NCBI RefSeq assembly: GCF_014197795.1 | Contig: NZ_JACIGI010000001.1 | Span: 48,120-112,119 of the forward strand | Length of the DNA: 64,000 bases | Source of the DNA: Roseospira goensis | GTDB taxonomy: Bacteria > Pseudomonadota > Alphaproteobacteria > Rhodospirillales > Rhodospirillaceae | Direction of reading: 5' to 3' | In this document: piece after piece, positions 44,594 to 52,263 of the stretch | Layout of the letters: each line of letters opens with the position of its first letter | Position numbering within the stretch: the first letter of the stretch is position 1 | The notes under the pieces: model-generated | The model's database searches: none | What the model was told of the DNA's origin: nothing | Seen by the model: the letters and a program-made list of their open reading frames with translations, nothing else | Position numbers and translations under genes: made by a program

Positions 44594-45412
44594 ATGCCTA
44601 TTGGCGCTCTCACCTCTTACATGGACGTGGCCCAGGTCGCCATCTGGGTCTTCTGGTTCTTCTTCTTCGGCCTCATCTTCTACCTGCGCCGCGAGGATCG
44701 GCGTGAGGGCTACCCGCTCGAGGCCGACACCACCGGGAAGGTCAACAAGCTGAGCTGGATCTGGATGCCGCCGGCCAAGACCTTCAACCTGTTCCACGGT
44801 GGCGAAACCCAGGCCCCGAACTACAAGCGCGACACCCGCCCGGTGAAGGGCAAGCGCGTCGCGTCGTGGTCGGGCGCCCCCTACGAGCCGACCGGTCAGA
44901 ACCCGCTGCTGGACTGCATTGGCCCGTCGGCCTACGCCGAGCGGCCGGACCGGCCGGAACTGGATCTGCACAACGGCCCGAAGATCGTGCCGATGCGCAC
45001 CGACAAGGACTTCACGATGGAGAAGTCCAGCCCCGATCCGCGCGGCATGAAGGTCGTCGGCTCGGACGGCAAGGTCGCCGGCACGGTTTCCGACCTGTGG
45101 GTCGACCGTCCGGAGATCATGGTCCGCTACTACGAGGTCGAGCTGGGCGCCGCGGCCCCGGCAAAGCCGGCCCCGGCCGCCGGCACCGGCCAGGCGGGGG
45201 CGGCCCCGGCGCCGGCCCCGACCAAGAAGCGGGTGCTGCTGCCGGTGAACTACGCCCACGTCAGCAAGACCCGCAACCAGGTCGAGGTTGCGGCCATCCC
45301 GTCGACGCTGTTCGCCCAGATCCCGACCACCAAGAAGCCGGATCAGGTGACCATGCTCGAAGAGGAGAAGATCACGGCCTACTACGGCGGCGGGTTCCTG
45401 TACGCCCAGTAG
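44594..45412 (+). CDS. puhA: photosynthetic reaction centre H subunit
   Basis: 272-residue H subunit of the type II reaction centre. One N-terminal membrane helix (VAQVAIWVFWFFFFGLIFYL, about residues 12-31) is followed by YLRREDRREGYPLE and the cytoplasmic domain that shields the quinone site; KVVGSDGKVAGTVSDLWVDR is the conserved core. An Ala/Pro-rich insertion near residues 184-210 splits the C-terminal barrel between VRYYEVEL and KKRVLLPV; similar loops elsewhere are shorter. GGAGG lies upstream of the ATG. Probably the most strongly expressed gene of the unit; a hairpin follows. Confidence 0.96.
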   Translation: MPIGALTSYMDVAQVAIWVFWFFFFGLIFYLRREDRREGYPLEADTTGKVNKLSWIWMPPAKTFNLFHGGETQAPNYKRDTRPVKGKRVASWSGAPYEPTGQNPLLDCIGPSAYAERPDRPELDLHNGPKIVPMRTDKDFTMEKSSPDPRGMKVVGSDGKVAGTVSDLWVDRPEIMVRYYEVELGAAAPAKPAPAAGTGQAGAAPAPAPTKKRVLLPVNYAHVSKTRNQVEVAAIPSTLFAQIPTTKKPDQVTMLEEEKITAYYGGGFLYAQ

Positions 45413-45502
45413 ACCCCAGGCGGCCGCGCGGGTCCGGTTGGCTGAACGGACCGGCGCACGGCCCCCGGGGTGGTCTGATCTGAGGAATTGCGGCATCATC
45501 TT

Positions 45503-45529
45503 CGCGGGACGGGCCTCCGCCGTCCCGCG
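45503..45529 (+). terminator. hairpin between puhA and puhB
   Basis: CGCGGGACGG (45503-45512), 7-base loop, CCGTCCCGCG (45520-45529): perfect 10-bp stem, not followed by a T-run. A smaller stem GGTCCG/CGGACC lies at 45436-45457. Such hairpins can stabilise the upstream puhA message or reduce read-through, so that PuhA is made in larger amount than the assembly factors. Confidence 0.55.
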
Positions 45530-45574
45530 AGGAGCCGTCTTACCCCCCATCCGAACGCATGCAGGGTCGGTATC

Positions 45575-46276
45575 GTGCACGACGATTTCGCCGTCGAACC
45601 CATCCCCGGACTGCCGGAGCGCCCGCCGGAAGGCGAGCGGGTTCTGTGGCAGGGTCGCCCGCGCTGGTGGAGCCTGTCGAAACGCCTGTTCCTGGTGCCG
45701 GTGATCGGCACCTATTTCGGCATTCTGGCCATCTGGTCCGGGGTGTCCGCCGCCTACGACGGGGCGCCCGCGGGCGCCGTGGCGATGGCGGTCGTCACGC
45801 CCCTTCTCATCGGCGGTGTCGCCGCCGGGCTGCTGATGCTGGTCGCGCTCTGGATCCAGCGCAGCACCATCTACACCATCACCAGTGAGCGGGTGATCGT
45901 GCGCTTCGGTCTCGCCTTCCAGATGACCGTGAACCTGCCGTTCCGCGTCATCAAGGAGGCCCAGCTTCGCGTCTTCCGCGACGGGACCGGCAACATTCCC
46001 CTGGTCCTGATGCCGGGGCAGAGCGTCTCCGGCCTGATGCTGTGGCCGCACGTGCGGCCGTGGCAGTGGGTGCGCCCGCAGCCCATGCTGCGCGCCATCC
46101 CGGTGCCCGAGGCGGTGGCCCGCACCCTGGCCGGGGCGCTCAGCGACCATGCCGCGCGCACCGGCGCCGAAGCGCCCGAGGCGCCCGACGCGGCCTCGAG
46201 GTCCGCAGAGGACGCGGCCGCCGCCCCATCCGTGCGCCCGGCCGGCGCGGCCCCGCTGGCCGACGCCGCCCCATGA
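45575..46276 (+). CDS. puhB: photosynthetic complex assembly protein PuhB
   Basis: 233-residue membrane protein needed for reaction-centre/LH1 assembly in Rhodobacter. It has the bPH2-type layout: an N-terminal GERVLWQGRPRWWSLSKRLF, two membrane helices between about residues 37 and 100, then RSTIYTITSERVIVRFGLAF and a beta-rich domain ending in LWPHVRPWQWVRPQPMLRAIP. The tail is Ala/Pro-rich. GTG start at 45575 with AGGGTCGG upstream; the longer frame from 45488 is not family-like. Confidence 0.92.
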   Translation: MHDDFAVEPIPGLPERPPEGERVLWQGRPRWWSLSKRLFLVPVIGTYFGILAIWSGVSAAYDGAPAGAVAMAVVTPLLIGGVAAGLLMLVALWIQRSTIYTITSERVIVRFGLAFQMTVNLPFRVIKEAQLRVFRDGTGNIPLVLMPGQSVSGLMLWPHVRPWQWVRPQPMLRAIPVPEAVARTLAGALSDHAARTGAEAPEAPDAASRSAEDAAAAPSVRPAGAAPLADAAP

Positions 46277-46367
46277 GGGGCGGACCGGTCCGACGGGGCG
46301 CCAAAGTCCCGGGCGCGCAACACCATGTCCCTTGGCCCGTAAAGCCCTCCAGGAAGGGAGCCGGTGC

Positions 46368-46865
46368 GTGAGCCACACCCGCAATCCCCACGATCTGAGC
46401 CCACCCAAGCCGCTGTTGTATGCCATCTTCGCGATGGTGCTGATCACCGTGTCCCTGGTGGCGGTCTATCGCTTCCTCGGCCTGGAGCCGGAGGGGGCGT
46501 CGCACGGGGCCGTGGTCGAGAGCCTGGACATGCGGCTGGTCACGACGCCGGACGGCGCCGTCGAGGTGCGCCGGCCCGCAGACGGCGGTCTGATCGCGGT
46601 CGTCCCCGAAGCCGAGAGCGGGTTCCTGCGCGGTATGATGCGCAGCCTGGGCCGGCAGCGCCAGGTTGCCGGCGTGCCCGACGACGCGCCGTATCGCGTC
46701 GTGCTGTGGGACAGCGGCCGGCTGACGCTGGGCGATCCCGCCACCGGCGAGGACATCGCCCTGCGCGCCTACGGGGCCGACAACCGAGACCAGATGTTCG
46801 CGCTGATGCGCCGGGTCGCGGATGCGGCCCCGGCGGCCGGCGCGGCCCCGCCGCCCACCCAGTGA
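46368..46865 (+). CDS. puhC: photosynthetic complex assembly protein PuhC
   Basis: 165-residue membrane-anchored protein of the PuhC family. One N-terminal helix (PLLYAIFAMVLITVSLVAVY) is followed by a periplasmic domain with GLIAVVPEAESGFLRGMMRSLGRQR in pieces and RVVLWDSGRLTLGDPATGEDI, typical of PuhC; it is needed for normal RC-LH1 levels in relatives. GTG start at 46368 behind AGGAAGGGAG. Confidence 0.91.
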   Translation: MSHTRNPHDLSPPKPLLYAIFAMVLITVSLVAVYRFLGLEPEGASHGAVVESLDMRLVTTPDGAVEVRRPADGGLIAVVPEAESGFLRGMMRSLGRQRQVAGVPDDAPYRVVLWDSGRLTLGDPATGEDIALRAYGADNRDQMFALMRRVADAAPAAGAAPPPTQ

Positions 46866-46953: not shown

Positions 46954-48873
46954 TTGGCCGACTACGCCCTTCCCATCCTCCACGCCGTGTTCGTCTGGTG
47001 GTTCAGCACCGGGGTGATCCTCTACCTCGATGGACTGCCGACCCGCACCTTCAAGTGGAGCATGCTGGGGGCGACCGCCATCTTCGGCGTGGCCTTGTAC
47101 GGCCTGTACACCAACGCCGGCGACGCCACGGTCTCGGGCGCCTATGCCGCCTTCACCTACGGCCTGCTGGCCTGGGGCTGGCAGGAGATCAGCTTTTACA
47201 TGGGCTACGTCACCGGCCCGCGGGCGCGTCCGTGCGGCGCGGACTGTCGCGGCTGGCGTCACTTCTGGCACGCCCTCGAGACCAGCCTGTACCACGAGAT
47301 CTCGATCGTCGTGACGCTGGCGGTGATCGTCGCCCTGACCTGGGGAGAGCCCAACCAGGTGGGGCTGTGGACCTTCGTCACGCTGTGGTGGATGCACGAG
47401 AGCGCGCGGCTGAACGTGTTCCTGGGCGTGCGCAATGTGAACGAGGAGTTCCTCCCCGATCACATGGAGTTCCTCAAGAGCTTCCTGAACAACAGCCGGC
47501 CGATCAACCTGTTGTTCCCGGTGTCGGTGACGATCTCGACCATCGTCACCGTGCTGGTGGCGCAGGCCGCCCTGGCCCCGGCGGCGACCGCGTTCGAGGT
47601 GGTCGGGTACACCTTCGTGGCCACCATGATGGCGCTGGCGATCCTGGAACACTGGTTCCTGGTGCTGCCCCTGCCGGGGGCGGCGCTGTGGAACTGGTCG
47701 CTGCGCTCGCGCACCCCGCAGGCCCCGGCGGTCGATGTCGAGATCGTGGCCGGGTTCCTGGGCGCGGGCAAGACCACCGTGCTGCGTCGTCGGCTGGCCG
47801 CCGCCGGGCCGGACCTGCGCTGTGTCGCCCTCGCCCACGACTGTGCGGCCCTGGCGCCGCCCGGTGTGCCGGTGACCCAGACCGCCAGTGGTGCGCGGGT
47901 CGAGCGGCCGGACGGCCAGCTTTGCCTGGGGCTGCGCGATGATCTGGCGCACCAGCTCAAGGAGGTGATCGCCAGCGAGCGGCCCGACCGCATCGTGATT
48001 GAACCGAACGGCATCGCCGACATCAGCGTGCTGATGCGGGTCCTGAACCGCGCCGACATCAAGCCCTCGATCAAGGCGGTGCGGCTGACGGTGGTGATCG
48101 ACGCCGGGGCCTTCATGGCGGACTACGCCCGTCTGCCCGAGTTCCTGAAGGCCCAGGTGCAGACCCACGGCCGCGCCGAGGACCCCAAGGCGGACGCCCC
48201 GCCGCCGGTGTTCATCATCAACAAGGCCGATCAGGTGGCGGCCGCCGACCTGGCCACGGTGACTCATACCCTGCGGGCGCTGAACCCGTCGGCACGGATT
48301 GTCACTGCCATCCACGGCGTTCCCGAGGGCGCCGCCGCGCCGCCCGCGAGCGAGCGCGCGGCCGCCGCGAGAGACGGCGCGACGCCGGGAGAGCCGCCGG
48401 CGCCGGGGGCGGTCGGGGCGCCGGGGGTGGTTGGGGCGGCCGGCAGCGTCCACCATACCCACCATCACCATCATCACCACCACCATTATCATGGGCCGGT
48501 GCCGGCCGGGGCCGCGACGGGGGGCGGCCCCCAGCCCGGGACGCGCGCCGCCGATGGCGGCGGCGAGGTGATCGTGCTCGACCTGCGCGCCTGGAGCGCG
48601 GACCTGACCGGACGCCTGGATCCGGAGGGCCTGCGCGCGGTGCTGGACGACGTCGCACGCGGGACCTACGGCGAGGTGGACCGGCTGCGCGGCGTGGCCC
48701 GCAGCGGCGACGGCTGGATGCGGTTCGAGGTCGCCGACGGCCGCACCAGTCTGACCGACGGCGGCCCGGCGGACGCGGCCGAGGCGCGCGTGGTCGCCGT
48801 CGGGCGCGCCCTGGACGGGGTCGGCCTGCGCCAGGCGTTCGAAGGCTGCGCGGCGCTCACCCAGCCCGCCTGA
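46954..48873 (+). CDS. puhE: PuhE fused to a COG0523 (CobW-type) GTPase
   Basis: 639 residues in one uninterrupted frame. Residues 1-255 are the photosynthetic complex assembly protein PuhE (DUF3623): about seven membrane helices, WGWQEISFYMGYVTGP, HALETSLYHEI and WMHESARLNVFLGVRNVNEEFLP. From residue 260 a COG0523 metal-chaperone-type GTPase follows: Walker A GFLGAGKTT (267-275), LCLGLRDDL (323-331) where the CxCC motif should be (only Cys324 is left), IEPNG (349-353), NKAD (423-426), a linker with 12 His in 500-513, then a CobW C-terminal domain to 630. TTG start at 46954 with GGAGACGGAG upstream. The usual separate PuhE is about 250 residues. The GTPase half probably handles metal during complex assembly, but this is inference. 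Confidence 0.9.
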   Translation: MADYALPILHAVFVWWFSTGVILYLDGLPTRTFKWSMLGATAIFGVALYGLYTNAGDATVSGAYAAFTYGLLAWGWQEISFYMGYVTGPRARPCGADCRGWRHFWHALETSLYHEISIVVTLAVIVALTWGEPNQVGLWTFVTLWWMHESARLNVFLGVRNVNEEFLPDHMEFLKSFLNNSRPINLLFPVSVTISTIVTVLVAQAALAPAATAFEVVGYTFVATMMALAILEHWFLVLPLPGAALWNWSLRSRTPQAPAVDVEIVAGFLGAGKTTVLRRRLAAAGPDLRCVALAHDCAALAPPGVPVTQTASGARVERPDGQLCLGLRDDLAHQLKEVIASERPDRIVIEPNGIADISVLMRVLNRADIKPSIKAVRLTVVIDAGAFMADYARLPEFLKAQVQTHGRAEDPKADAPPPVFIINKADQVAAADLATVTHTLRALNPSARIVTAIHGVPEGAAAPPASERAAAARDGATPGEPPAPGAVGAPGVVGAAGSVHHTHHHHHHHHHYHGPVPAGAATGGGPQPGTRAADGGGEVIVLDLRAWSADLTGRLDPEGLRAVLDDVARGTYGEVDRLRGVARSGDGWMRFEVADGRTSLTDGGPADAAEARVVAVGRALDGVGLRQAFEGCAALTQPA

Positions 48874-48982
48874 CGCGGACGCGGCGCGCCCCGCCGCCCG
48901 CCGGCCCTTGACGGACCGGCCGCCTCCGGCCATCACTCCGGTCCGCGTCCCCGCCGTGCCCGAACCACAGGATCCCCGCCCG

Positions 48983-49666
48983 ATGTGCGACCTCCGCGAC
49001 CGCGCCGCCGATGCCGACACCTGCCCCGACTGCGCCGCCGCGGGAACCCCGCCGGACGAGGACGCCCGCATCGGCCCCAACAGCATCACCCGCATTGCCG
49101 ACGCCCTGCGCGATCGCCGCGGCCCGGTCGAGACGGCCGCCCTGTTCGCCGCCGCCGGCCTGGCCCACCATGCCGCCCGGCCGCCCGAGAGCATGGTGCC
49201 GGCCGCCGACGTCACGGCCCTGCATGGGGTGTTGCGGGCGCGCCTGGATCACGACACCGTGGTGGCGGTGAGCCGCGCGGCCGGGGTCGCGACGGCCGAT
49301 TACCTGCTGGCCCACCGCATCCCCAAGCCGGCCCAGGCGGTCCTCAGGCTGCTGCCGCCGGTTCCCGCGGCCCGGGTTCTCATCGGGGCCATGGGCCGCC
49401 ACGCCTGGACCTTCGCCGGCGGCGGCCGCTTCGAGGGCCACGCCGGCCGGCCGACCCGCCTGGTCATCGCCGACGGCCCCATCCAGGCGGCGGTTGCGGA
49501 CGCGGAGGCGCCGGTGTGCGACTACTACGCCGCCACCTTCGAGCGGCTGTTCCGCGTTCTGGTGGCGCGCCGCACGCGGGTGCGCGAGGTGGCCTGCCAG
49601 GCGATGGGCGCCCCGGCCTGCGTGTTCGAGGCCGACTGGACGCGGTCCGGCGACGCCCGCTCTTGA
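48983..49666 (+). CDS. bchJ: BchJ, V4R-domain protein of bacteriochlorophyll synthesis
   Basis: 227-residue protein of the BchJ family, once called 4-vinyl reductase and now thought to bind or deliver tetrapyrrole intermediates. GPNSITRIADALRDRRG near the N-terminus and the V4R part at the C-terminus (CDYYAATFERLFRVLVAR, VREVACQAMGAPACVFE) identify it. The N-terminus MCDLRDRAADADTCPDC has three cysteines. ATG at 48983 with AGGA upstream is preferred over an in-frame TTG at 48908 that lacks a ribosome-binding site. Last recognised photosynthesis gene of the unit. Confidence 0.87.
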   Translation: MCDLRDRAADADTCPDCAAAGTPPDEDARIGPNSITRIADALRDRRGPVETAALFAAAGLAHHAARPPESMVPAADVTALHGVLRARLDHDTVVAVSRAAGVATADYLLAHRIPKPAQAVLRLLPPVPAARVLIGAMGRHAWTFAGGGRFEGHAGRPTRLVIADGPIQAAVADAEAPVCDYYAATFERLFRVLVARRTRVREVACQAMGAPACVFEADWTRSGDARS

Positions 49667-49973: not shown

Positions 49974-50871
49974 GGGTGACGACCGACAGCAGGGTCTGGG
50001 TCGTGATGATGCCCGCCACCAGCGGCGCGTCCCCGCCCATACGCCGGGCCAGCACGTAGGACGAGGCCGAGCAGGGCAGGCCGCCGTACAGCACGGCGAC
50101 CGTGGTCGTGACCGCGTCCAGGCCGGCCAGGGCGCACCCGGCCCAGACCAGCAGCGGCACCACCGCCAGCTTGGCCACGCCCGAGACCGCCACCGGCGCG
50201 CCAGCGTGTCGCAGATGCGCGAACGACAACCCAGCCCCCACCGCCAGCAACGCCACCGGCAGGGCGGCGCGGCCCAGGATCTCCAGCGTCGGCCCGATCA
50301 CCGGCGGCAGCCCGAGGCCGGTCGCGTTCAAGGCGATGCCCAGCGCGCAGGCCAGGATCAGCGGATTGGTGACGATGCCGCGCGCCACGCCCCAGGGGCT
50401 GGCCGACTGGCCGGCGCCGAAGCGCGCCATGCAGGTCACCGACAGGACGTTGACCAGCGGCACCACGACGGCGACGCCGATCGCGGTGAGCGTGACGCCG
50501 GTGTCGCCGAACAGCGCCGCCGCCACCGCCAGCCCGATGTAGGTGTTGGGCCGGATCGCGCCTTGAAAGACGCTGGTGAAGGCCGGACCGTCGACGCCCA
50601 ACCGCGCTCCGAGTGTCCGGCGGGCCGCCACCGTCACCGCCGCCACCAGCAGCACCGCCGCCGCCTGGATCGTCATCAGCGGCGCCCAGGCGACCGCGGT
50701 CATGTCGGCCTTGGCGAGGTTGGCGGTCAGCAGGGCGGGGAAGGTGACGGTGTAGGTCAGCGTCTCCGCCGGCCCCCAGAACGCGTCCGGCAGCCAACGC
50801 CCGCGCTTCAGTCCGAAGCCGAGCAGGATGACGAGGAACACGGGCAGCACGGCGGCGAGGGTGTCGGTCAT
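49945..50871 (-). CDS. AEC-family transporter
   Basis: 308-residue inner-membrane transporter of the auxin efflux carrier family (PF03547), with about ten hydrophobic helices. The family opening LPVFLVILLGFGLKRGRWLP and the paired VFQGAIRPNTYIGLAVAAALFGD and CSASSYVLARRMGGDAPLVAGIITTQTL segments are typical. Relatives export or import dicarboxylates, malonate or auxins; the substrate is unknown. ATG at 50871; convergent with the 81-residue gene and divergent from the GcvT-like gene. Confidence 0.88.
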   Translation of the reverse strand: MTDTLAAVLPVFLVILLGFGLKRGRWLPDAFWGPAETLTYTVTFPALLTANLAKADMTAVAWAPLMTIQAAAVLLVAAVTVAARRTLGARLGVDGPAFTSVFQGAIRPNTYIGLAVAAALFGDTGVTLTAIGVAVVVPLVNVLSVTCMARFGAGQSASPWGVARGIVTNPLILACALGIALNATGLGLPPVIGPTLEILGRAALPVALLAVGAGLSFAHLRHAGAPVAVSGVAKLAVVPLLVWAGCALAGLDAVTTTVAVLYGGLPCSASSYVLARRMGGDAPLVAGIITTQTLLSVVTLTVLVWLVP

Positions 50872-51036
50872 GACGGCGTCATTCTACCCACGAGGCGCCG
50901 TCACGGGCAAAGGGCGCGCCCTGGTCGCGCCCTGCGCCGACGACTACACTCGGAAGCGCAGCCATCGCGCGTTCGGCGCCGCCACGCCGGAGCCCGCCGC
51001 GTCACCCAGGGTCCACTCTTATGGGGGCAATGTCAC

Positions 51037-52263
51037 ATGTCGGATGGCCCGCAGACCGTTTCCTTTGCCGTCCTGCCGCTTCCGAGCGACGCGGCAGGCA
51101 GCGGGACCGAGTTCGCCCGCACGCTGGCGGCACACCCCCTCGTCCACCAGGAACTTCCCTACGATCCCCAATACACGGTCTACAATCGGCGGCTGACCGC
51201 GCTCCGCATGACCAGCGGATCGGCCGAAGACGCCTACTGGCGGCTGCGCCGTCACGTGATCCTGCGTCACACCGGGGAACTGCCGATCGAGGTCCGGGGG
51301 CCGGATGCGGTCCGGCTGCTCGATCTCGTCTTTACCCGCGACGTGGCCAAGACCCGGGTCGGACGGTGCAGTTATCAGATCGCCTGTCTGGACGACGGCG
51401 GCATGATCATGGATGGCGTCCTCGTGCGTCTGGCCGAGGATCGGTTCTGGTACGGGCAGGCGGATGGTGACCTGACGCTCTGGCTCAAGGCGCAGGCCCG
51501 TGGCCTGGACGTCGCGGTCGTGGACCCGGGTGTCTGGGTCAGTCAGGTGCAGGGTCCCGACTCGCTGAGGGTCCTGGAGGCCGCGGTGGACGGGCCGTAT
51601 CCCGACCCGTTCCGCTACTTCGATGCCGCCCGGGTTCGGATCGCCGGGCAGGACGTGGTCATCACCCGGACCGGGTTCACGAACGAGCTCGGATGGGAGG
51701 TCTACCTTGAGCCCGGCGGCGATACGCCGGCCGTGGGTGACCGCATCCTCGACGCCGGTCGGCCCTATGGCCTGACCCCGGTGGCGGTGGGCGGCGCGCG
51801 CCGGATCGAGGCCGGGTTGCTCAACGCCGGCTCCGACTTCGACGAGACGGTGACCCCGTTTGCCGCCGGACTGGGGTCCATGGTGGACCTGGACAAGCCG
51901 GCGTTCATCGGAAAGGCCGCGCTGCAATGTGCCGACACGCGCTCCCGCACCTGGGGCCTGCGCGTCCCGGGGGGCGTGGCGCGCCTCGGTCTGACGCTCG
52001 AGACCGAGGGCGCGCCGGCTGGGCGCGTCTGCTCGTCCGCGTGGTCGCCGTTTCTGGGGTGCGGCGTGGCGATCGTGCGGCTCGACGAGGCCGGGCCCGG
52101 TCCGGGCACGCCCATCGCGGTGGTGTGCCATGACGATCGCACCCGCCCCGCCGAGCTCTGCACGCTGCCGATGTACGATCCGCATCGGGAGATCCCGCGC
52201 GGCAAGCGGGTCGATATTCCGACCTTTCCCCGCCCGGAGATGGGGCGCGACGAGGGGGCGTGA
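51037..52263 (+). CDS. GcvT-family aminomethyltransferase-like protein
   Basis: 408-residue protein with the tetrahydrofolate-binding GcvT fold. RHTGELPIEVRGPDAVRLLD, GRCSYQIACLDDGGMIMDGV and VVITRTGFTNELGWEVYLEP match the family; the C-terminal GcvT barrel contains TWGLRVPGGVARLG. No gcvH or gcvP is nearby and the N-terminus is unlike true GcvT, so it more likely belongs to the folate-dependent demethylases (dimethylglycine, DMSP or O-demethylases). ATG at 51037 behind GGGGGCAA. Substrate unknown. Confidence 0.78.
   Translation: MSDGPQTVSFAVLPLPSDAAGSGTEFARTLAAHPLVHQELPYDPQYTVYNRRLTALRMTSGSAEDAYWRLRRHVILRHTGELPIEVRGPDAVRLLDLVFTRDVAKTRVGRCSYQIACLDDGGMIMDGVLVRLAEDRFWYGQADGDLTLWLKAQARGLDVAVVDPGVWVSQVQGPDSLRVLEAAVDGPYPDPFRYFDAARVRIAGQDVVITRTGFTNELGWEVYLEPGGDTPAVGDRILDAGRPYGLTPVAVGGARRIEAGLLNAGSDFDETVTPFAAGLGSMVDLDKPAFIGKAALQCADTRSRTWGLRVPGGVARLGLTLETEGAPAGRVCSSAWSPFLGCGVAIVRLDEAGPGPGTPIAVVCHDDRTRPAELCTLPMYDPHREIPRGKRVDIPTFPRPEMGRDEGA

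What the first reader, a model, noticed from the sequence alone, without database searches (positions are those of the whole stretch)
46954..48873. PuhE fused to a COG0523/CobW-type GTPase
A single open frame joins a reaction-centre assembly membrane protein to a metal-chaperone-type GTPase with a C-terminal CobW domain. The fusion places a nucleotide-driven metal handler physically at the site of reaction-centre/LH1 assembly. It could serve Mg-pigment or iron delivery, or sense metal. I know of no description of this fusion, though it may exist in close relatives.
Basis: partly seen in the sequence, partly recalled or inferred. Interest (0 to 1): 0.8.

Follow-up and report, generated by a model that had tools for sequence, protein, structure and literature searches.

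The report
PuhE fused to CobW-type GTPase
In some photosynthetic bacteria a membrane protein thought to help assemble the light-harvesting machinery is one chain with a metal-handling GTPase; the fusion is real, but in this organism the GTPase has lost its usual metal-binding cysteines.

Summary
The fusion is real. One uninterrupted frame (46954-48873) encodes PuhE (DUF3623), a CobW/COG0523 G-domain, a poly-His linker and CobW_C. All 7 genomes of the genus carry it (one split over two contigs). So do 23 of 118 inspected PuhE genomes of a second group (f57: Lichenicoccus, Acidiphilium multivorum, an Acidocella MAG) with the metal motif CxCC intact, and G035, G196 and G1239. No separate cobW frame lies beside unfused puhE in the loci scanned.

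The metal-chaperone reading fails for the window copy: CxCC is QLCL here and absent in 7 of 7 genus copies, while P-loop, hhhExxG, NKxD and the His stretch remain. Three f57 genomes lack both CxCC and the His stretch; 15 keep only CobW_C, closest to the fused kind, so there the GTPase was most simply deleted. The genus lacks acsF, which lies directly upstream in every CxCC-intact locus with upstream sequence.

Best reading: an old PuhE-metallochaperone fusion, in this genus reduced to a nucleotide-binding regulatory or scaffold domain. The intact form in Acidiphilium makes the open question of Zn-bacteriochlorophyll testable. No paper on the fusion was seen in the listings searched.

The parts
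46954..48873 (+). fused puhE-cobW gene, 639 aa from a TTG (start inferred)
   Evidence: same fusion in the genus
46957..47718 (+). PuhE / DUF3623 membrane domain, residues 2-255
   Evidence: PF12291 E 1.3e-110; TIGR03055 330 bits
47737..48303 (+). CobW/HypB/UreG-type G-domain, residues 262-450
   Evidence: PF02492 E 3.5e-20; profile of 32 fusions matches YjiA 1nij E 6.2e-24
47752..47778 (+). P-loop GFLGAGKTT, residues 267-275
47917..47928 (+). QLCL at the place of the CxCC metal motif, residues 322-325 (degenerate)
   Evidence: alignment A1
47998..48012 (+). IEPNG (hhhExxG motif), residues 349-353
48220..48231 (+). NKAD base-recognition motif, residues 423-426
48451..48492 (+). histidine stretch, 12 His in 14 residues (500-513), mixed CAC/CAT codons
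   Evidence: His-rich linker in all 6 complete copies and in G006
48589..48849 (+). CobW_C domain, residues 546-632
   Evidence: PF07683 E 3e-6
44594..45412 (+). puhA, reaction-centre H subunit (context)
   Evidence: PF03967 E 2.4e-49
45488..46276 (+). puhB-like frame, bPH_2 domain (context; start not settled)
   Evidence: PF03703 E 9.5e-5
46149..46865 (+). puhC-like frame (context; no Pfam hit, named by place; start not settled)
48908..49666 (+). V4R-domain gene (bchJ-like) directly after the fusion
   Evidence: PF02830 E 1.2e-13

Best explanation
An old gene fusion joined PuhE, a membrane protein whose C-terminus probably faces the cytoplasm, to a complete COG0523 GTPase (G-domain with CxCC, His-rich linker, CobW_C). 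In its intact form it puts a GTP- and metal-binding (probably Zn2+) module at the membrane site of bacteriochlorophyll synthesis and reaction-centre assembly. It probably reports metal status to PuhE or passes metal to a local client, and so tunes pigment synthesis. In the window's genus the CxCC site is gone while P-loop, hhhExxG, NKxD, His stretch and CobW_C remain under purifying selection; there the domain most likely works as a nucleotide-dependent switch or scaffold on PuhE, with at most weak metal binding by the His stretch. Shown: fusion, domain order, gene context, motif states, the several architectures. Inferred: single origin followed by loss, topology, metal identity, GTPase activity, effect on pigment synthesis.
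For: Domains. Same fusion in the genus, in G035, and in groups f57, f129, f202. It follows puhABC (and acsF where present) in every fusion locus with that much upstream sequence. CxCC (read as CICC, the sorting criterion) in 23 of 118 inspected f57 genomes, G035, G196, G1239. Linker His in the 24 CxCC-intact rows counted: 8-31 in 23, 3 in G196. Window genus: CxCC absent in 7 of 7 copies; P-loop, hhhExxG and NKxD in 6 of 6 complete copies. dN/dS of the genus G-domain 0.15-0.58 in 6 (not independent) pairs. CobW_C-only tails (15 genomes) score 57-107 bits with the fused CobW_C profile, 1-17 with a free-standing one. [quoted passage not shown] Zn/Co preference of COG0523 proteins: PMC7895991 passages.
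Against: No activity, metal or interaction data. PuhE often does without the domain: of 118 f57 genomes 74 have PuhE alone and 15 only CobW_C. In the genus the G-domain's dN/dS is 1.5-2.7 times that of PuhE (6 pairs); intact forms show 1.1-3.8 times (8 pairs with a value), so relaxation is not specific. Switch I also changed in the genus (HDC, HQL, TDC, NDC where intact forms read NDF), so switching may be impaired. No structure model could be made.
Confidence: 0.45

Rival explanations
1. The intact COG0523 domain metallates AcsF, the oxygen-dependent cyclase encoded directly upstream; when acsF was lost the CxCC site decayed.
For: acsF ends 55-121 bp before the matched start of puhE in 24 of 25 CxCC-intact loci (the 25th has no upstream sequence) and lies just upstream in G1239. 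No acsF in 6 of 6 genomes of the window genus searched whole (G006 was not). R. rubrum (G032), G036 and G025 lack both acsF and the CobW domain.
Against: acsF stands there too in 79 of 83 loci classed 'alone', in 24 of 24 unfused loci of the class sample, in 16 of 16 CobW_C-only loci and in 3 fusions without CxCC; puhABC-acsF-puhE is the usual order (PMC6052148, PMC10576062 passages). Only 2 independent pairs on the tree, so no test. AcsF being di-iron is recalled.
Confidence: 0.17
2. In Acidiphilium the fusion supplies Zn2+ for replacing Mg2+ in bacteriochlorophyll.
For: 7 of 7 inspected PuhE genomes of A. multivorum's genus code (g423) carry the CxCC-intact, His-rich fusion. It is stated to be unknown how Zn replaces Mg (PMC7242693 passage), Mg being inserted first (PMC4944227 passage). 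YjiA and YeiR prefer Zn (PMC7895991 passages).
Against: The same intact fusion is in Lichenicoccus, G035, G196, G1239 and others not known (recalled) to make Zn-bacteriochlorophyll; the window genus has lost the site. Acid pH alone could favour Mg loss.
Confidence: 0.07
4. Assembly or sequencing error joining two neighbouring genes.
For: None found.
Against: Same uninterrupted frame in five further genus genomes and in three other family-level groups.
Confidence: 0.01

Closest known systems
PuhE (DUF3623, PF12291; TIGR03055), e.g. Rhodospirillum rubrum ATCC 11170 (G032)
   Same: Whole PuhE domain, place after puhABC
   Different: R. rubrum PuhE carries no GTPase; the window protein has about 380 extra residues
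COG0523 GTPases (YjiA 1nij/4ixm, CobW, ZigA)
   Same: P-loop, hhhExxG, NKxD, His stretch, CobW_C; best profile match in the PDB is YjiA; best NCBIfam profile on the window G-domain is ZigA, 54 bits against a cut-off of 600
   Different: Tethered to a membrane protein; CxCC missing in the window genus, although PMC2770081 (passage) says all COG0523 members have it
M. tuberculosis RV0106 (PMC2770081 passage)
   Same: COG0523-like protein with an altered CxCC motif
   Different: RV0106 also lacks the GTPase motifs; the window protein keeps them and is fused to PuhE
IcmF, a MeaB-family G3E chaperone fused to its target enzyme (PMC9164220 passages)
   Same: A G3E GTPase covalently joined to its presumed client or site of action
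   Different: Different G3E subfamily, soluble partner enzyme, cobalamin delivery
PuhE-V4R fusions in G036, G019, G011 (this work)
   Same: A soluble domain on the C-terminus of PuhE in the same cluster
   Different: The partner is a BchJ-like V4R domain, not a GTPase

Membership tests
PuhE | DUF3623 / TIGR03055 match over the curated cut-off | tested here: met
PuhE | Place in the puh cluster | tested here: met
PuhE | Seven transmembrane helices, C-terminus inside | tested here: inconclusive
   5 hydropathy peaks over the threshold, two more inferred by eye; 7 TM for DUF3623 stated in PMC12423673 (passage); given those, K/R lie only in loops that would be inside
PuhE | Modulates bacteriochlorophyll production | not testable with these tools
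   only the title of Aklujkar 2005, in a reference list
COG0523 / G3E GTPase | GxxGxGKT, hhhExxG, NKxD | tested here: met
   motif definitions from PMC7895991 passage
COG0523 / G3E GTPase | CxCC metal-binding motif | tested here: not met
   QLCL in the window; absent in 7 of 7 copies of the genus; present in 26 relatives of other genera
COG0523 / G3E GTPase | CobW_C domain | tested here: met
   PF07683 27.4 bits against cut-off 22
COG0523 / G3E GTPase | His-rich stretch (about 40% of members, PMC2770081 passage) | tested here: met
   12 His in 14 residues
COG0523 / G3E GTPase | Metal binding and GTP hydrolysis | not testable with these tools
   needs purified protein

The most novel reading that the evidence does not exclude
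The CxCC-intact PuhE-COG0523 fusion is a membrane-anchored, GTP-driven metal loader for the bacteriochlorophyll/reaction-centre assembly site. In Acidiphilium it is the missing factor that lets Zn2+ replace Mg2+ in bacteriochlorophyll, and its metal site decays in lineages that gave up the aerobic (AcsF) pathway, as in the window's genus.
Probability: 0.07. Interest if true: 0.9.

Novelty: new variant of a known kind. Interest (0 to 1): 0.6.

Why it matters
How Acidiphilium gets zinc into its bacteriochlorophyll is stated to be uncertain or unknown in two reviews of which I read passages. A metal-handling GTPase fused to an assembly factor and encoded next to acsF in such organisms gives a named gene to delete. 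The set of states (intact; metal site lost; GTPase gone with CobW_C kept; no domain) is a natural experiment on which part of a COG0523 protein does the work.

Tried and rejected
Frame error: rejected. Separate cobW gene beside unfused puhE: the only cobW frame without a puhE hit at E 1e-4 is G006's other half (loci L112-L137 with 1.5 kb flanks and L185-L320 with 4-7 kb where the contig allowed). PuhE as acyltransferase: DUF3623 was once in Pfam's AT3 clan, withdrawn according to PMC12423673 (passages). CxCC with acsF: all 25 CxCC-intact rows of the tree set have acsF and the 13 rows without acsF have no CxCC, but only 2 independent pairs exist, so it is a lead, not a test. The AU test did not finish and was not repeated; one search puts free-standing CobW_C on one side of a branch from all fused and CobW_C-only ones (SH-aLRT 87, few columns). 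L212 was wrongly among the CobW_C-only tails; one search left out L212, L319 (same genome as L210) and L107_1 (long branch), and all non-alphaproteobacterial free-standing rows. L227 (G006) is labelled 'alone' although it is a fusion cut by a contig end; L220 (G565) is cut too and counted as intact in the tree set but as 'alone'. The phmmer matches of P0001 in the PDB that were listed (60 of 154) look mostly like expression His-tags. Host name: the window's family code holds R. rubrum (G032, by its plasmid); a Roseospira-like genus is a guess from recall, untested.

Full report
Observation. Window frame 46954-48873 is one open frame of 639 codons. Pfam finds DUF3623 at residues 2-255 (E 1.3e-110), cobW at 262-450 (3.5e-20) and CobW_C at 546-632 (3e-6), all over their cut-offs. 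NCBIfam's TIGR03055 names it PuhE at 330 bits, so annotation by that model alone would hide the fusion (inference). It follows bchH, bchL, bchM, lhaA, puhA, puhB and puhC and precedes a V4R gene.

Not an artefact. All 7 genomes of the genus have it: the window, 5 relatives with 65-73% identity over nearly the whole length and no stops, and G006 where contig ends split the gene. In the family code 13 of 74 genomes have PuhE: the 7 of the genus and G035 fused to CobW; G036, G019 and G011 fused to a V4R domain; G032 (R. rubrum ATCC 11170 by its plasmid) and G025 without either.

How widespread. A class sample of 385 genomes holds 27 PuhE over the cut-off; 3 of the 27 carry the cobW domain (window, G430, G196). 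A phylum sample of 398 holds 31; the window, G430 and G1239 carry it. Of these 31, one search gave no locus for 11; G349, G110, G421 and G242 had been read from the class sample, the other 7 were judged by frame length only (263-332 aa, too short for a GTPase). The family of G430 (code f57) was sampled with 397 genomes: 122 have PuhE and 118 were inspected: 23 intact fusions, 1 with the GTPase cut by a contig end, 3 fusions without CxCC, 15 PuhE plus CobW_C only, 1 possible remnant, 74 PuhE alone, 1 PuhE cut by a contig end; 4 were not inspected (G511, G588, G668, G799). f57 holds Lichenicoccus roseus (G577 gives the same protein as L001) and Acidiphilium multivorum AIU301 (12,000 bases of contig C2 of G722 are 100% identical to NC_015179.1); NCBI puts them in Acetobacteraceae and Acidocellaceae. 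All 7 inspected PuhE genomes of G722's genus code are intact fusions. Named fusion hosts: L. roseus, MAG LL2.bin43, an Acidocella sp. MAG.

Metal site. COG0523 proteins share GxxGxGKT, hhhExxG, [NST]KxD and CxCC (PMC7895991, PMC2770081, passages). The three nucleotide motifs are present in all 22 fusions aligned. Twenty-six fusions read CICC (the criterion by which they were sorted). The six complete genus copies read QLCL, HVCF (twice), RTAH and AVCL (twice); G006 lacks CxCC as well. The His-rich linker is kept in the genus (11-13 His in six copies) but not (1 His) in the three f57 fusions without CxCC (G567, G747, G512). The window's His stretch is coded by mixed CAC/CAT codons, so not a plain slippage tract. 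Within the genus dN/dS is 0.15-0.58 for the G-domain and 0.06-0.23 for PuhE in the same 6 pairs (simple counting method, pairs share sequences, one dS elsewhere saturated): constrained but looser; intact forms overlap in ratio.

GTPase missing, CobW_C kept. In 15 f57 genomes PuhE runs directly into a 90-residue CobW_C with no G-domain. These tails score 57-107 bits with a profile of fused CobW_C built without them and 1-17 bits with one of 16 free-standing alphaproteobacterial CobW_C. Pfam's CobW_C model sees them weakly: of five tested, one over the cut-off (L219), three below it, none in L210. The trees have few columns or many weak forks: the PuhE tree needs 12 changes of architecture (shuffled mean 45.1), the CobW_C-only state changes 4 times on it but strongly supported branches force only 1. 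CxCC-less fusions lie in separate places (window genus; G567/G747/G512). The simplest account is one early fusion followed by decay, as CobW_C is otherwise a part of COG0523 proteins; horizontal transfer is not excluded: G035's PuhE groups, weakly, with f57 ones.

acsF. The aerobic cyclase gene lies directly upstream of puhE in 24 of 25 intact-fusion loci (no upstream sequence in the 25th), 16 of 16 CobW_C-only loci (15 genomes), 3 of 9 CxCC-less fusions, 0 of 3 V4R fusions, 79 of 83 loci classed 'alone' and 24 of 24 unfused class-sample loci; also in G1239. Whole-genome searches find no acsF in G000-G005, G032, G036 or G025, but find it in G035, G722, G577, G857, G430 and G196; bchE is over its cut-off in G000-G005. 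Intact CxCC was never seen without acsF where acsF could be looked for, but acsF often occurs without the GTPase, puhABC-acsF-puhE being the usual order (passages), and 2 independent pairs are too few for a test.

Topology and PuhE. Five hydropathy peaks pass the threshold; with two more helices inferred, K/R lie only in loops that would be inside, which puts the GTPase in the cytoplasm (inference). H114, E115, E232, H233, W15, T19, W74, G84, G88 and G158 are each conserved in at least 138 of 139 PuhE rows, a possible pigment or metal site (inference). No structure model was possible. The closest solved structure by profile is YjiA (E 6.2e-24).

Function. [quoted passage not shown] Acidiphilium makes Zn-bacteriochlorophyll (PMC12654162 passage); Mg chelatase inserts Mg and Zn is proposed to follow (PMC4944227 passage); how is unknown (PMC7242693 passage). 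A G3E GTPase fused to its target enzyme has a precedent in IcmF (PMC9164220 passages). I favour a metal-reporting or metal-passing module on PuhE in the intact form, and in the window genus a nucleotide-binding regulatory or scaffold domain without the high-affinity metal site. The AcsF-client, zinc-loading and decaying-passenger readings stay open.

Literature. Searches for puhE with CobW, DUF3623, puhE alone (40 of 29,911 listed, mostly unrelated text), CobW with photosynthesis gene cluster, puhE with puhB, Acidiphilium with puhE (none), and COG0523 with fusion terms (10 of 1,073 listed) showed no paper about this fusion. Passages of the 2 papers and the 4 were read and do not mention it. 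Haas 2009 (PMC2770081) holds none of 'fused', 'fusion', 'photosyn', 'bacteriochlorophyll' in its main text. Only open-licence PMC papers are held.

Noticed in passing
L232 (G036), L231 (G019), L233 (G011): PuhE fused at its C-terminus to a BchJ-like V4R domain in three genomes of the window's family code, none with acsF in the locus; in R. rubrum and the window genus the V4R gene simply follows puhE.
   Followed up: partly
L206, L210, L219, L255, L260, L263, L266, L269, L270, L279, L296, L301, L302, L304, L305: PuhE carrying only the CobW_C domain: a C-terminal domain that seems to have outlived its GTPase.
   Followed up: yes
L321 (G1239) and L185 (A. multivorum): Very long His/Asp-rich linkers between G-domain and CobW_C.
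   Followed up: no
window 46954-47718 and the 139 PuhE rows: Conserved HE (114-115) and EH (232-233) pairs in or near predicted membrane helices of PuhE, a possible pigment or metal site.
   Followed up: no
L281 (G594): PuhE tail of about 50 residues that may be a deleted CobW_C remnant (5.8 bits, weak); next to the CxCC-less G512 in the PuhE tree.
   Followed up: partly
L202, L204, L205 (genus code g395, which holds the Acidocella MAG): A bchH-like frame (50-54% to window bchH) follows the fused puhE in these three loci.
   Followed up: no
window 50206-52263: GCV_T/aminomethyltransferase-type protein a little downstream of the puh cluster.
   Followed up: no
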